Below, piece after piece: positions 17,918 to 30,805 of a stretch of 64,000 nt of DNA. The notes under the pieces were generated by a model. That model did no database searches. It worked only from the letters and a program-made list of their open reading frames with translations, and was not told the origin of the DNA. This DNA comes from Kineococcus xinjiangensis (lineage in GTDB: Bacteria > Actinomycetota > Actinomycetes > Actinomycetales > Kineococcaceae): the NCBI RefSeq assembly GCF_002934625.1, contig NZ_PTJD01000008.1:124001-188000 (forward strand). Direction: 5' to 3'. Each line of letters starts with the position of its first letter. Positions within the stretch are counted from its first letter, which is position 1. The position numbers were made by a program, and so were the translations under genes.

Positions 17918-17990
17918 GCGCCCGTAGCTCAGCGGATAGAGCACCCGACTTCTAATCGGACGGTCGAAGGTTCGAATCCTTCCGGGCGCG
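17918..17990 (+). tRNA. tRNA-Arg (anticodon TCT)
   Basis: 73-nt cloverleaf. Acceptor GCGCCCG pairs with CGGGCGC, the D arm is GCTC/GAGC, the anticodon loop CTTCTAA carries TCT, and the T arm is GAAGG-TTCGAAT-CCTTC. The first anticodon-stem pair is a C-A mismatch. CCA is not encoded. A tyrosine integrase gene lies about 100 bases beyond the 3' end, so this tRNA is the likely integration site. The gene is intact, as expected if the element carried a replacement 3' end. Confidence 0.93.
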
Positions 17991-22749: not shown

Positions 22750-24996
22750 TCAGGCGCCGCACTTCTCGTCACGCTCAGTGAGAGCAGCGCGAATGTCGGT
22801 GCGGGTGATGCCGCGCCGGTTGACGACCTTGCCGCCCTCGCGCCGGCCGATCTGGACGGTGTCGATGCCGAAGGGGGCGACGGCTCCGGCGAGGTCCCCG
22901 GCGTCCCAGCCGGTGTAGACGTCCGGGCGCAGCTCGGCGAGTTTCTCCACCAGGACCTCCGACCATTCCTTCTCCGGTCCGGTGACCATCACCTCGGCGA
23001 GATCGTCCAACACGGTGGGGACGGGGACGTTGTCGTCGGTGTCGGGGTCGAAACCGGCGGCGTGGCCGGTGAGGCGTCCGGCGGCGAGGCGGGCGGTGCG
23101 GGCGCGGGCGGTGATGGCGGCGGCGGCGGGGGCGTCGAGGTAGGCGGTCTTGACGATGACCGGCTCGCTCCCGTCGCCGATGAGGTAGCCGATGCCGAGG
23201 TCGGAGCGGGTGAAGGTGGTGGCCCGGATGCCGGCCTTGTACATCGAGGTGCCCAGCACCATGTCGTTCTCGGTCTGGCCCATGACCCGCAGGCAGAACC
23301 GCAAGGTGGCGTTGGCGCTGATGCCGGTGGGCAGGGACTTGGCGTCGGGGCGCTGGGTGGCAACCAGCACGACGATGCCGACGGCGGGGCCGCGCTTGAC
23401 GAGGTCGGTGACCAGGGTTTCGGCGTCCTTGCCGTGGACGGGGTGCTCGAAGAGGAACTGGCACTCGTCCAGCCCGAAGGCCACCGGGTGTAGGCCCAGC
23501 TCCTTGCGGGCGGCCAGGTCGGGGGTGACCTTGTTCTCCGGGCACTCGGTGCGGGGCAGGTTGCGGATCACGGTGTAGCGGCGGCGCATGTCGGCGACCA
23601 GGGCCCGCAGGTCGGCCATCAGGTACGCCAGGTCCTCCTCCTCATCCCCTGCCCGGTAGCGGTGCGCCACGGCCTCCAGGGCGGAGAGGTCCCCGGAGCC
23701 CTTGAGGTCGTAGACGTGCACCTCCGCCAGCGGGTCCAGGGCAGCGGCCAGCAGGAGCAGGCGCAGGGTGAAGGTCTTGCCCATCCGGGGCGTGGCGCCG
23801 ATGACCATGGAGGCGTACATCAGCGTGAGCGTCGCGGGCCGCCCTCGCTGGTCGACCCCGACCGGGAACGGGGCGAACAGCGACACGCGTCCGCTCTTGG
23901 TCAGCGGCCACGTCACGGGCTTGCCGGCGGACAGGGCGCGGTCGCCGACCCAGAGGACCAGGCGCCCGGCGTGCTGCTCGGAGTCCGGCTCCGGCCACAC
24001 ACACCCCAGCGGGCGGCGCAGGCCGGAGGCGAGGCGGTCGCGTCGCTCGATGACGTCCCCTGCCGTCACTCCGGGGGGTAGGTCGCAGTCGGCGCGCCAG
24101 CCCGGCCCGTCGCGGTGGATCGGGGCGACGAACCGCACCCCGTCCCCGGTGCGCAGGTGCTTGTTCAGCTCCGCCACCCCCAGCGACCCCAATGCCGTGA
24201 GGATGAGCTCGGACGTGAACCTGGGCACCGAGGCCGCACTGACAGCGGAGCCGGTGATCCGCTCGTCGGGCTTGCGGCCGAAGCCGCCGAGGCCGGCGAG
24301 TGCTGCCGCCGTGGCCGCGAGGGTTGCCCAAGCCGTCGCCGTCGTCAGGGCCACGTACACCGCGACGAGCACCGCTAGCAGGGCCGCGCCCAGCAGCGCC
24401 ACACGCCAGCGCACCCGGTCCCGGTGCTGCTCGCTCACCCGGTGGAAGGCGGTGGCCTCCGCTGAGCCCATCACCTGACCCAGCGCGATGGCTCGACGGA
24501 CCTGCCGGCCGTTGCCGTCACTGGCCCACCAGAACAGCGCGACCACGATGCGCCATGACCCGCGCGGGGACCGCTGGGCCAGGCGCAGCCAGTACAGCGG
24601 CAGGCGCAGCAGGTGGAACAGCAGCGTGCGTCCGGCCGCGTCGAGGCGATCGCGGACCAGTCCCGTCACGGCGTCGCGGTCGAACCACCACGAGGGCACG
24701 ACCTGCTTTCGCTGCCGCGTCCCCACGGCCGGGGCAGCGCGCACCGCCTCGTCGACGTCGAGGATGACGCCCTCGACCACCTCGCCGTATCCACCGGGTC
24801 CGGCATCCTCGTGCCGGTCCTCATCGAGGTGGCGGCGTGCCCGGGCGGCGCTCAGGTCCACCACCTGGCCCGCCGCCACGTCTCCATGGGTCCCGGTCCT
24901 CGTCGCCTGGTCGTCCTTGCGCAGGTCCACGGCCTCTCCCGCCTCCTCCTCGCGTGCCTGGTCGTCGCCTGCCTGCTCGTTGTGGTGCTGACTCAC
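22750..24996 (-). CDS. FtsK/SpoIIIE-type DNA translocase (TraB-like conjugal transfer protein)
   Basis: 748 residues. Two membrane helices lie near residues 205-255 (VALLGAALLAVLVAVYVAL...). The FtsK ATPase follows: Walker A GATPRMGKT at ~398-406, DLKGSGD, Walker B VAFGLDECQFLF, VLVATQRPD. The C-terminal ~70 residues (ITRTDIRAALTER) form a winged-helix-like end. In Streptomyces plasmids and AICEs a single such protein moves double-stranded DNA between mycelia. The N-terminal 120 residues are hydrophilic and charged. GTG at 24996 overlaps the preceding stop as GTGA. Confidence 0.88.
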   Translation of the reverse strand: MSQHHNEQAGDDQAREEEAGEAVDLRKDDQATRTGTHGDVAAGQVVDLSAARARRHLDEDRHEDAGPGGYGEVVEGVILDVDEAVRAAPAVGTRQRKQVVPSWWFDRDAVTGLVRDRLDAAGRTLLFHLLRLPLYWLRLAQRSPRGSWRIVVALFWWASDGNGRQVRRAIALGQVMGSAEATAFHRVSEQHRDRVRWRVALLGAALLAVLVAVYVALTTATAWATLAATAAALAGLGGFGRKPDERITGSAVSAASVPRFTSELILTALGSLGVAELNKHLRTGDGVRFVAPIHRDGPGWRADCDLPPGVTAGDVIERRDRLASGLRRPLGCVWPEPDSEQHAGRLVLWVGDRALSAGKPVTWPLTKSGRVSLFAPFPVGVDQRGRPATLTLMYASMVIGATPRMGKTFTLRLLLLAAALDPLAEVHVYDLKGSGDLSALEAVAHRYRAGDEEEDLAYLMADLRALVADMRRRYTVIRNLPRTECPENKVTPDLAARKELGLHPVAFGLDECQFLFEHPVHGKDAETLVTDLVKRGPAVGIVVLVATQRPDAKSLPTGISANATLRFCLRVMGQTENDMVLGTSMYKAGIRATTFTRSDLGIGYLIGDGSEPVIVKTAYLDAPAAAAITARARTARLAAGRLTGHAAGFDPDTDDNVPVPTVLDDLAEVMVTGPEKEWSEVLVEKLAELRPDVYTGWDAGDLAGAVAPFGIDTVQIGRREGGKVVNRRGITRTDIRAALTERDEKCGA

Positions 24997-25286
24997 GCCG
25001 CACCCCCGGTGTCCATCGGACCCAGCCGCCTCGGTGCGGCGACCGGCCGCGCGCCGTGGTGCAGCTCGTTGTGGACCCCGGCCAGGAACTCCGCCTCCGC
25101 CGCGCTGTCCAGCGCCCGCCCCTCCAGGCGGCACACCAGGCACACCACCGAGGCGGGCAGCGGCCTCGCCTCGCCTACCTGTGCGGTGCAGTCCAGGCGC
25201 AGCAGCCGTGCCGTGATGCCCACTGCGCAGGTGATGCTCAGGGCTGCCAGGACGCTCGTCGGATCGATGCTCGTCATCGCGCTCAC
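24993..25286 (-). CDS. Small membrane-associated protein of the transfer operon
   Basis: 97 residues, family not recognised. The N-terminus has one hydrophobic helix (SVLAALSITCAVGITARLL). Then CLVCRLEGRALD and HNELHHG give a C-x2-C plus His set that could bind a metal. GTG at 25286 overlaps the upstream stop (GTGA), and its own stop overlaps the translocase start, so it belongs to the same translational chain. A helper role in transfer, like Spd proteins, is inferred from position only. Confidence 0.65.
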   Translation of the reverse strand: MSAMTSIDPTSVLAALSITCAVGITARLLRLDCTAQVGEARPLPASVVCLVCRLEGRALDSAAEAEFLAGVHNELHHGARPVAAPRRLGPMDTGGAA

Positions 25287-25495
25287 GCCCCGAAGAAGCT
25301 GGCGCCGACGCTGTCCAGCCCCGTCCGCACACCGTCGACCAGCGACTGCGACACCCCAGCCAGCGCCCCGTCCGACCCCGCGATCGTCAGACCGAGCATC
25401 ACCGCCAGGACGGCGACGAAGGTCGCCCGTCCGTCCTTCCAGCAGGCAGCGACCAGCGCACCGAGCATGAAGAGTCCGAAGACGGCGAGGCTCAT
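25283..25495 (-). CDS. Small membrane protein of the transfer operon
   Basis: 70 residues: MSLAVFGLFMLGALVAAC, a short KDGR loop, a second helix TFVAVLAVMLGLTIAG, and an amphipathic tail. It looks like a two-helix inner-membrane protein. ATG at 25495 overlaps the stop of the DUF6284-like gene as ATGA. No family is recognised; similar small membrane genes accompany traB in pSAM2-like elements. Confidence 0.65.
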   Translation of the reverse strand: MSLAVFGLFMLGALVAACWKDGRATFVAVLAVMLGLTIAGSDGALAGVSQSLVDGVRTGLDSVGASFFGA

Positions 25496-28182: not shown

Positions 28183-28409
28183 GGCGGGGTCACCTCCACG
28201 GTGATGACTTCCGCACGGGCCCCGCTGTTGTGGAGCTTTTCAAGTGTCTTGTCGACTTGGCTCACCTTCGCCCCCTTGGCTGCACCGACGATGATCCCGT
28301 CGAGGTCGTCGACGTTGTCGATAATGCGCTGGAGGCGGCGTGCGGCTTCAAGCACGCCCCAGGACCAGCCCCACAGAGCTTGACGAAGAATTGATGATCT
28401 TCCGCTCAC
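28179..28409 (-). CDS. Small hypothetical protein, probably 5'-truncated by the IS110 element
   Basis: 76 residues (LWGWSWGVLEAARRLQRII, then DNVDDLDGIIVGAAKGAKVS). The start GTG at 28407-28409 lies inside the first base pairs of the 251-bp IS-derived repeat, with AGGAAGAG 8 bases upstream also inside it. The present start signals therefore come from the inserted DNA, and the original N-terminus is probably lost. The stop overlaps the TPR-like gene start. Family not recognised. Confidence 0.5.
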   Translation of the reverse strand: MSGRSSILRQALWGWSWGVLEAARRLQRIIDNVDDLDGIIVGAAKGAKVSQVDKTLEKLHNSGARAEVITVEVTPP

Positions 28410-28419
28410 TGGTCAGACT

Positions 28420-28640
28420 CTTCCTGCCGGCGAGTCCCTGAGGCACCGTTGCCGGTGCCGGCAGCACGGGGCTGCTGGTGCACCTGGTCCCACCGGGCCA
28501 CCGCCTATCATCCGCTGACCTTCGAGGTCCGGCATGAGATCCGCGGGGTCCGGTGGCCCCAGGCCGCGAGTGACTGGCGACAGGGCTACGCGCCGTTTGA
28601 GCGCCGATCAGTGAGCGACCGGCTTCGTGGCCCGAGACCA
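28420..28640 (+). ncRNA. Candidate bridge RNA, copy 1
   Basis: IS110 recombinases of the type with upstream non-coding ends use a bridge RNA from that region, with one loop pairing the target and one the donor. This copy holds strong hairpins near 28440-28480. The ends are approximate and transcription is not shown; the assignment rests on position and family knowledge. Confidence 0.4.
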
Positions 28641-28670
28641 CCGGGTGCCCACCTGCTCACTGGTCAGACT

Positions 28671-28905
28671 CTTCCTGCCGGCGAGTCCCTGAGGCACCGT
28701 TGCCGGTGCCGGCAGCACGGGGCTGCTGGTGCACCTGGTCCCACCGGGCCACCGCCTATCATCCGCTGACCTTCGAGGTCCGGCATGAGATCCGCGGGGT
28801 CCGGTGGCCCCAGGCCGCGAGTGACTGGCGACAGGGCTACGCGCCGTTTGAGCGCCGATCAGTGAGCGACCGGCTTCGTGGCCCGAGACCACCGGGTGCC
28901 CACCT
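28671..28905 (+). ncRNA. Candidate bridge RNA, copy 2
   Basis: Identical to copy 1 and contiguous with the transposase leader, so this is the copy expected to guide the element. Boundaries are approximate. Confidence 0.45.
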
Positions 28906-28931
28906 GCTGCAGCAACAGCACGGAGGACTCC

Positions 28932-30185
28932 ATGAGTGTCGAACAGCACCACAGCGGCCGTCGAGAGGCGACAGCGACGGCGGCGAAGCTGACCGCGGGA
29001 ATCGACTGGTCCAGCACCCACCACGCCATCGCACTGGTCGATGAGCACGGCGGTCAGGTCCAGCGCCTGGACGTCGAGCACACCGCCGCCGGGCTGCGCC
29101 GGCTGGTCCACTGCCTGCAGCAGGCCGCGGTCACCGGGGTCGGCATCGAACGCGGCGACGGACCGCTGGTCGACGTCCTCCTCGAGGCGGGCCTGACGGT
29201 CTTCGTCATCGCCCCCAACCAGGTCCGCAACCTGCGCCGCCGCTACGGCTCGGCGGGCAACAAGGACGACGCCTTCGACGCCTACGTGCTGGCCGACACC
29301 GTCCGCACCGACCGGCTGCGGCTGCGCCCACTGACTCCGGACTCCCCGGCGACGGTGACGTTGCGGATGAGCGTGCGGGCCCGGCAGGACTTCGTCGCCG
29401 CCCGCGTCGCGATGGCCAACCAGCTGCGGGCGCACCTGCAGCACGTTCTGCCCGGTGCCATCGGCTTGTTCAGCCACCTGGACTCCGCCGTCAGCCTGGC
29501 GTTCCTGACGCGCTTCCCCACCCAAGACAGAGCCGACTGGCTCTCCCCGCGTCGGCTGGAGAACTGGCTACGGACTCAGCGCTACTGCAACCCCCGCCGA
29601 GCCGACGTCCTGCACGCCCATCTGGTCGCGGCCGCCCGCGGGGCCACTGGCCCTGAGGCCGAGGCGCGAGCGGGCGTCACTGCGGCTTTGGTGGCTGGGC
29701 TGTCGTGCTTGCGGCAGCAGATCGCGGCACTGGATGAGGACATCGCCCAGCAGCTGGCGCGGCATCCCGACGCGGTGGTGTTCACCTCCCTGCCCAAGGC
29801 CGGCGTCGTCCGCGCGGCCCGGCTGCTGGCCGAGATGGGCGATGCCCGCGGCCGCTTCCCTACCCCGGAGTCCCTGGCCTGCCTGGCCGGCGCCACCCCT
29901 TCAACGAGGCAGTCGGGCAAGGTCAAGGTCGTCGCCTTCCGCTGGGCCGTCGACAAGCAGCTGCGCGGGGCGGTCATGGACTTCGCCGGAGACTCCCACC
30001 ACGCCAACACCTGGGCCGCCGACCTCTACCAACGAGCCCGCGCCAAGAACCACAGCCACTCCCACGCCACCCGCATCCTCGCCAGAGCCTGGCTGCACGT
30101 CATCTGGCGCTGCTGGCAAGACGGCGTCGCCTACGACCCCGCCCGCCACCGCGCCCTACAGGCGCTGGAGAAATCAGCTGCGTGA
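28932..30185 (+). CDS. IS110-family RNA-guided recombinase (transposase)
   Basis: 417 residues. The N-terminal RuvC-like DEDD domain has GIDWSSTHH (Asp25), GIERGDG (Glu73) and NKDDAFDAYVLAD (Asp112/113 and 116). The C-terminal Transposase_20 domain has SLPKAGVVRAARLLAEMGD and the serine motif ATPSTRQSGK near residue 324. All catalytic residues look intact, so it may be active. ATG at 28932 has GGAGG 5 bases upstream. It cuts and rejoins DNA by recognising sites through a bridge RNA. Confidence 0.93.
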   Translation: MSVEQHHSGRREATATAAKLTAGIDWSSTHHAIALVDEHGGQVQRLDVEHTAAGLRRLVHCLQQAAVTGVGIERGDGPLVDVLLEAGLTVFVIAPNQVRNLRRRYGSAGNKDDAFDAYVLADTVRTDRLRLRPLTPDSPATVTLRMSVRARQDFVAARVAMANQLRAHLQHVLPGAIGLFSHLDSAVSLAFLTRFPTQDRADWLSPRRLENWLRTQRYCNPRRADVLHAHLVAAARGATGPEAEARAGVTAALVAGLSCLRQQIAALDEDIAQQLARHPDAVVFTSLPKAGVVRAARLLAEMGDARGRFPTPESLACLAGATPSTRQSGKVKVVAFRWAVDKQLRGAVMDFAGDSHHANTWAADLYQRARAKNHSHSHATRILARAWLHVIWRCWQDGVAYDPARHRALQALEKSAA

Positions 30186-30255
30186 GGTAGGACGCCTGCT
30201 GACGCCGATCGCGCACGATCGAGTCGTCCTCGATGGCCTGTTGGACACTGCGTCG

Positions 30256-30711
30256 GTGAGTGATGACGAGCCGGAAGTGACGCGCCAGCAGGTTGAGCAG
30301 TGGTGGCGAGACGTCGCTGAAGGCCGCTGCAGCCGGCTCAGCGCCTCGCGCTGGGCCCAGAGCTGGCTGGACAGGGGCCCGTCCCGCATCGAGGAACTGG
30401 GCATCCAAGGTCTGCTCCACCTGCATGCTCTGCGGCATCAGCCCGCGGCGGGACTTCCCTCCACTTCCACCTTCGGCACGCCCGACGCCGAAGCGGCAGA
30501 CGCCTTTGAACACTGGCTCGCTGAGTGCCGACGCTACGACTCCGATCCCCAAGCTTGGGATCGGGCCTACTTCCGATCGATGATCACCAAATTTGCAGAG
30601 AAGCACGGCCAAGAGGCAGCAGACCGGTTCGGGCGAAAGCTCATGGCCAAGGACCTGTTCACTGAGTCGGACCTGATGGCTGCTCTGTCAGCGGCTGCGC
30701 ACCGGCCATGA
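30256..30711 (+). CDS. Hypothetical protein, possibly 5'-truncated by the IS
   Basis: 151 residues from a GTG; coding-like sequence already begins near 30186 directly after the IS transposase, so the gene may have lost its start to the insertion. Segments such as RQQVEQWWRDVAEG, AEAADAFEHWLAECRRYDSD and AEKHGQEAADRFGRKLMAKD look like a real soluble helical protein. GC content is lower than in the backbone. No family recognised, and no Shine-Dalgarno precedes the GTG. Confidence 0.5.
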   Translation: MSDDEPEVTRQQVEQWWRDVAEGRCSRLSASRWAQSWLDRGPSRIEELGIQGLLHLHALRHQPAAGLPSTSTFGTPDAEAADAFEHWLAECRRYDSDPQAWDRAYFRSMITKFAEKHGQEAADRFGRKLMAKDLFTESDLMAALSAAAHRP

Positions 30712-30805
30712 CCAACACCTTCCCAGACGGCAGCCGTTGACACAGGGCATCTCATGCCGCGCTGAGGGCGCGATCATGAGCGACCCGAGACGACCTGCGT
30801 CGCCG

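What the first reader, a model, noticed from the sequence alone, without database searches (positions are those of the whole stretch)
28404..28931. Tandem duplication of an IS110 left end, hence two bridge-RNA loci
The 251-bp unit before the recombinase is repeated head-to-tail without visible change. In IS110 elements with upstream non-coding ends this region encodes the bridge RNA and the left junction. Two copies could give two guide RNAs or an internal second left end that lets the recombinase resolve or re-excise the element.
Basis: partly seen in the sequence, partly recalled or inferred. Interest (0 to 1): 0.7.

Follow-up and report, generated by a model that had tools for sequence, protein, structure and literature searches.

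The report
IS110 element with doubled guide-RNA end
A jumping gene of the IS110 family in an actinobacterium carries, head to tail, two identical copies of the end that encodes its guide RNA; as assembled this is real and unusual, but it looks like a recent rearrangement that adds no new targeting rather than a new mechanism.

Summary
Confirmed: two letter-identical 251-bp units (28404-28654, 28655-28905) lie head to tail before an open IS110 recombinase gene (28932-30185). The unit is the element's whole left end; in relatives it occurs once and starts at the same base. Each unit encodes a complete predicted bridge RNA: fold supported by compensatory changes, donor loop resembling the element's ends, target loop fitting the insertion's flanks, guides covarying with flanks across relatives. 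So "two bridge-RNA loci" holds, but both carry the same guides. Only unit 1 can receive the promoter formed when the ends join in the circular form, and unit 2's left junction lacks the target half-site, so it should be a poor excision end. No other examined locus has two units. The repeat starts on the element's crossover dinucleotide, so I favour an aberrant recombinase event (nested or tandem copy, then loss of one gene); the acceptor site is not guide-like, so a microhomology duplication remains possible. The assembly is a short-read-type draft (k about 95) with another copy ending at a contig edge, so placement and unit number need long reads. Also found: a 551-bp passenger segment before the true right end, and a dispersed REP-like target.

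The parts
28395..28404 (+). Left target half-site TGATCTTCCG (host flank; its last base G is also the first base of unit 1)
   Evidence: Shared with the C9 insertion; the 14-mer TGATCTTCCGCTCA occurs uninterrupted by the element at two other places, L080 and L082
28404..28654 (+). Left-end unit 1; core CT at 28405-28406, -10-like CAGACT at 28414-28419
28655..28905 (+). Left-end unit 2, identical; -10-like CAGACT at 28665-28670
28480..28646 (+). Bridge-RNA core 1: target loop guides 28506-28516 and 28530-28538; donor loop guides about 28580-28589 and 28606-28617 (read by eye)
   Evidence: R1 hit 144.4 bits; for the target guides
28731..28897 (+). Bridge-RNA core 2, identical
   Evidence: R1 hit 144.4 bits
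28906..28908 (+). GCT at the far edge of unit 2: proposed acceptor site of the rearrangement (CCCACCTG-CT-GCAGCAAC)
   Evidence: guide score 6 of 16
28932..30185 (+). IS110 recombinase, 417 aa, open frame
30187..30711 (+). Passenger open frame (P0002, 174 codons plus stop; start codon not determined) in a 551-bp segment between recombinase stop and right end
30737..30752 (+). Right end TTGACACAGGGCATCT; -35-like TTGACA 30737-30742, core CT 30751-30752
30753..30779 (+). Right flank: copy of a dispersed 27-nt REP-like repeat
   Evidence: 17 copies at up to 3 mismatches, this one included; control 0

Best explanation
This is an IS110-group element inserted at a REP-like target, with core CT at 28405 and 30751, whose complete left end is duplicated. 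Shown: the exact repeat, its start at the element terminus, a full predicted bridge RNA in each unit, guides fitting the insertion site, single left ends in relatives. Inferred: the duplication arose when a left terminus (core CT plus right-donor sequence) was joined to another G-CT just upstream of the gene (28906-28908) of a second copy. That could be a nested insertion followed by homologous loss of one gene, or a head-to-tail dimer followed by cis excision between its inner right-left junction and this site. Inferred effect: in the circular form one promoter (TTGACA-17-CAGACT) would read through both units and give up to twice the same bridge RNA. The inner left end, lacking the left target half, would rarely serve for excision, and homologous recombination should readily delete one unit. 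So it is most likely a young, near-neutral variant.
For: Unit start equals the left-end start in relatives L031, L015 and L048, with both breakpoints at a G-CT. Bridge RNA: 36 pairs, 17 with compensatory changes, 0 of 500 shuffles reach the covariation score, slid controls fail. R1 hits the window twice. Guides fit own flanks better than shuffled flanks, P 0.00075 left and 0.0004 right. Joined empty site fits the guides at 14 of 16 and matches an uninterrupted repeat at 33 of 39. -35 of unit 2: 1 of 6. IS621 off-target sites mostly keep CT, 102 of 117 (PMC11208160, passage).
Against: The acceptor site scores 6 of 16 against the guides, as do or exceed 31% of 6235 CT sites, so it is not a guided target. 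The coincidence of breakpoint and terminus is one event, roughly 1% by chance on my own estimate, not a computed test. No second case in any relative examined. Draft assembly with a second copy at a contig end. A single base difference would have given the duplication an age; there is none.
Confidence: 0.48

Rival explanations
1. Ordinary tandem duplication by replication slippage or end joining at the 3-bp GCT microhomology, unrelated to the recombinase.
For: GCT is shared at both breakpoints; the acceptor is not guide-like; perfect tandem repeats arise this way commonly (general knowledge).
Against: Needs the left breakpoint to fall by chance on the element terminus.
Confidence: 0.27
2. Assembly collapse: the genome holds a full nested or head-to-tail second element, or the junction belongs to the C9 copy, and the assembler wrote a double left end here.
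For: Contig ends point to a k of 95; C9 ends 95 nt into the left end and its right side is absent from the readable contigs; C9's end shares no terminal stretch with the other 65 readable ends; nine contigs read as N and none under 1,050 bases was seen.
Against: The contig runs through both units without N, and the 3-nt overlap at the junction is too short for a spurious overlap join (inference).
Confidence: 0.17
3. One reading: two bridge-RNA loci or an inner left end that is used for re-excision.
For: Both units carry the complete RNA core and the donor sequence.
Against: Guides identical; unit 2 has no -35 (1 of 6) and its junction fits the left target guide at 4 of 8; no second case among relatives; flanking target bases are needed for circle formation in ISEc11 (PMC11187229).
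Confidence: 0.08

Closest known systems
IS621 and IS110-group elements with a bridge RNA (PMC11208160, PMC11208158; passages seen)
   Same: Recombinase domains, CT core, long left end encoding a two-loop RNA, -35 in the right end and -10 in the left end, target in a repetitive palindrome
   Different: Left end doubled; a 551-bp passenger segment before the right end; actinobacterial clade
Single-left-end relatives in Kineococcus rubinsiae (L031, L048) and Micromonospora sicca (L015)
   Same: 81-83% identity over the unit, same start, same RNA fold
   Different: One unit; right end directly after the gene (L031, L015); L048 has lost the right-end sequence
TIGR-Tas guide arrays (PMC12045711; passages seen)
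   Same: Proposed evolutionary kin of IS110; tandem guide units
   Different: Arrays of short processed units with varied spacers; here two identical full bridge RNAs. The paper describes IS110 bridge RNAs as a single two-stem unit

Membership tests
IS110 family, IS110 group | DEDD transposase domain plus Transposase_20 domain | tested here: met
   PF01548 and PF02371 over cut-off; NF033542 over cut-off
IS110 family, IS110 group | Catalytic residues intact | not tested
   Frame is open over 417 aa; residues were not aligned to IS621
IS110 family, IS110 group | CT core at both ends, with the flanks joining to an empty target | tested here: met
   Core at 28405 and 30751; joined flanks match uninterrupted repeat L087 at 33 of 39; L085 has an indel, 22 of 39 ungapped
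IS110 family, IS110 group | Long non-coding end upstream of the gene (not downstream as in IS1111) | tested here: met
   Unit upstream in the window and relatives
IS110 family, IS110 group | Bridge RNA with target and donor loops | tested here: met
   Fold and covariation, target guides against flanks; donor guides by eye, with a mismatch beside the core at the right end. No RNA was measured; no Rfam family matched here at gathering score
IS110 family, IS110 group | Promoter formed at the right-left junction of the circle | tested here: met
   TTGACA, 17 nt, CAGACT in the joined ends; activity not testable here
IS110 family, IS110 group | Circular intermediate and transposition | not testable with these tools
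   Second insertion at C9 with the same left half-site is indirect support
IS110 family, IS110 group | Single left end (usual anatomy, not a formal criterion) | tested here: not met
   Two units here; one in each of 23 other loci with a hit, of 36 sources, and one in each of 39 further loci; the two sets overlap

The most novel reading that the evidence does not exclude
A bridge-RNA element caught at the first step of building a guide array: a duplication of the whole bridge-RNA unit, made by its own recombinase, that yields a two-unit transcript and frees one target loop to diverge, giving one recombinase two target specificities; the inner left end could also let a single-unit circle leave and a solo bridge-RNA gene stay behind.
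Probability: 0.06. Interest if true: 0.72.

Novelty: new variant of a known kind. Interest (0 to 1): 0.36.

Why it matters
If the double left end is real and formed at the core CT, it shows that an IS110 recombinase can rearrange its own guide-RNA locus, a route to guide duplication and new target specificity, and it offers a natural test of whether an inner left end without its target half can excise. If it is a slip or an assembly collapse, it matters only as a caution for annotating IS110 ends. Better-supported by-products: a bridge RNA for this actinobacterial IS110 clade, its REP-like target, and an IS110 that carries a passenger segment.

Tried and rejected
Rfam at gathering score gave only a tRNA in the window, so I built R1 instead. 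Self-insertion programmed by the element's own guides: rejected, 6 of 16 at the acceptor and 31% of 6235 CT sites score as well or better. A 251-nt read-length artefact was considered and set aside because contig ends point to a k of 95. Integration via the tRNA-Arg at 17918: no 14-mer of it recurs in the window. The first listing of the 27-mer sites failed on a minus-strand locus and was repeated on both strands. For the alignment A1, 20 of the 23 left ends collected were used; L039, L027 and L020 were left out on inspection (truncated or with insertions). A regular expression for the target loops picked wrong places for five loci (L030, L023, L029, L051, L019); their guides were set by eye. 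In one search, L048 and L029 had no readable right flank and L020 (6-nt flank) was dropped from the right test; the shuffles do not correct for relatedness, and 6 of 17 elements match their left flank at 3 of 7 or fewer. Passenger protein: no plasmid hit, no viral-contig relative, no PADLOC or NCBIfam family, one sub-threshold Pfam match, E 0.068. Paper searches. No title or abstract start listed there is about a doubled IS110 left end, and (IS110 family, tandem duplication, recombinase) found 0 papers; this covers open PMC papers only.

Full report
Observation. The window holds two identical 251-bp units head to tail, 28404-28654 and 28655-28905 (letter identity rechecked). The three bases after unit 2 (GCT) equal the start of the unit; the bases before unit 1 (ATCTTCC) and before unit 2 (CCCACCT) differ. 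The array is followed by a 26-base leader (28906-28931) and a 417-aa open frame, 28932-30185, with both IS110 domains and an NCBIfam IS110 model over its cut-off.

Where the element ends. In relatives L031/L049 (one place, fetched twice), L015 and L048 the left-end homology starts at or within a few bases of the unit start and the unit occurs once. The right end TTGACACAGG lies within 45 nt of the aligned gene end in 20 of 22 relatives examined; L048 and L033 lack it. In the window it lies at 30737, 551 bp after the stop codon. The segment between holds a 174-codon open frame with no significant family in Pfam, PADLOC or NCBIfam. It has homologues (36% and 35%) at two places in one same-family genome and one weak match in each of three others: 5 of 396 genomes, this one included. 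Joining the two host flanks gives TGATCTTCCG-CT-CATGCCGCGCTGAGGGCGCGATCATGA. An uninterrupted repeat elsewhere in the genome (L087) matches it at 33 of 39 positions; another (L085) has an indel and matches at 22 of 39 without gaps. The right part occurs 17 times at up to 3 mismatches, this copy included, with 0 for the reversed control. The left 14-mer occurs uninterrupted at two other places (L080, L082). So unit 1 and the right end look like the two ends of one insertion into a REP-like repeat.

What the unit encodes. Twenty left-end cores (window plus 19 relatives; three of 23 collected were left out) give a consensus fold of 36 pairs, 17 with compensatory changes. 95.2% of cells pair, 0 of 500 shuffles reach the covariation score, and sliding the partner strand by 1 to 3 columns destroys it. 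Folded alone, the unit is more stable than all 200 shuffles (z -3.49). The covariance model R1 hits the window twice (144.4 bits each) and 23 other loci once each, of 36 sources searched; 19 of those 23 supplied the training sequences, and one (L049) is the same place as L031. Read by eye, the first loop holds TATCATCCGCT and CGGCATGAG, matching the left flank and, as reverse complement, the right flank of this insertion. The second loop holds ACAGGGCTAC and GATCAGTGAGCG, resembling the right end and, as reverse complement, the left end. The right-end match is imperfect beside the core (CAT against CTA). Across relatives, guides fit their own flanks better than others': left 74 of 119 against a shuffled mean of 59.9, P 0.00075, 17 elements; right 77 of 98 against 68.1, P 0.0004, 14 elements. 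Guides were partly set by eye, relatedness is not corrected, and 6 of 17 elements match their left flank at 3 of 7 or fewer. The joined empty site fits the window's guides at 14 of 16; the best of 6235 CT sites in the window scores 12.

Promoters. Joining right and left end gives TTGACA-17-CAGACT, the arrangement described for IS621 circles (PMC11208158 and PMC11208160, passages). At unit 2 the hexamer 17 nt upstream of CAGACT is CGGGTG (1 of 6); at unit 1 in the chromosome it is TTGATG (4 of 6). So unit 2 would depend on read-through from unit 1 (inference).

How rare. In 396 genomes of the order, 25 hits at E up to 1e-4 in 13 genomes; two are the window pair and none of the other 23 adjoins another. 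In 394 genomes of the class, a set that overlaps the first, 18 hits in 15 genomes, again only the window pair adjacent. Rescanning the 39 loci from these two searches found one hit each; some repeat earlier loci (L104, L111 are the Kineococcus copies). A self-comparison of 67 loci found no direct repeat of 80 nt or more spaced 80-1500 nt at E up to 1e-10. Both genome searches used stricter filters and scored few candidates per genome, and short-read drafts can hide perfect duplications, so this is a weak negative for drafts.

Is it an artefact? The genome is a 42-contig draft. Among 66 readable contig ends, 57 of 82 shared terminal stretches are exactly 95 nt and all 5 end-to-end overlaps are 95 nt, which points to a k of 95 (inference). 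Contig C9 ends exactly 95 nt into this left end, so there is a second insertion with the same left half-site. Its right side is not among the readable contig ends, and C9's end shares no terminal stretch with the other 65. The junction between the units is unlikely to be invented, but it could belong to the C9 copy, or be what is left of a nested or dimer element.

Mechanism. The repeat begins on the element's own crossover dinucleotide and its other breakpoint is another G-CT. That is what would be seen if a left terminus had been joined by the recombinase to a site just upstream of the gene, followed by loss of one gene. It is also compatible with a chance microhomology duplication; I put the coincidence at about 1% by a rough estimate, not a computed test. 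The acceptor is not guide-like (6 of 16; 31% of CT sites do as well or better), which argues against an ordinary guided insertion. IS621 does insert off target, 102 of 117 such sites keeping CT (PMC11208160, passage). The inner left end has CCCACCTG in place of the left target half, 4 of 8 against 7 of 8 at unit 1; replacing flanking target bases prevented circle formation in ISEc11, an IS1111-type element (PMC11187229, passage). I therefore expect excision from unit 1, no change of specificity while the copies are identical, some gain in RNA dosage, and early loss of one unit by homologous recombination.

Verdict. A true bridge-RNA-type element with a doubled left end: a variant worth a long read and a junction PCR, of modest interest, most likely a young by-product of transposition. 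Papers were seen as search listings and passages only, as cited.

Noticed in passing
30187-30711: Passenger open frame inside the IS110 element, between recombinase and right end; no known family, distant homologues in a same-family genome, one of them (L143) near a frame that looks like an IS3-type transposase by eye.
   Followed up: partly
30753-30779 and 16 other places in the genome: Dispersed 27-nt REP-like repeat, imperfectly palindromic with its left part; it seems to be the target of this IS110.
   Followed up: partly
L076, just before the repeat (minus strand of contig C17, about 92884-92950): A short fragment, about 34 nt, resembling the Kineococcus-type IS110 left end (GCTCACTGCGCAGACTCTTCC) abuts a copy of the REP-like repeat: perhaps a remnant of an older insertion (by eye).
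   Followed up: no
Contigs C27, C28, C33 of the same genome: Five other places match the IS110 domain PF01548; the loci holding them gave no R1 hit, so they belong to other IS110 types.
   Followed up: partly
22750-25332 (minus strand): 860-aa frame with an FtsK_SpoIIIE domain (PF01580, E 1e-7), possibly part of an integrated mobile element near the IS110.
   Followed up: partly
L051 (Rhodococcus plasmid pRWAY03), 2935-4166: An annotated IS3-family transposase gene lies between the bridge-RNA end and the recombinase gene of a related IS110.
   Followed up: no
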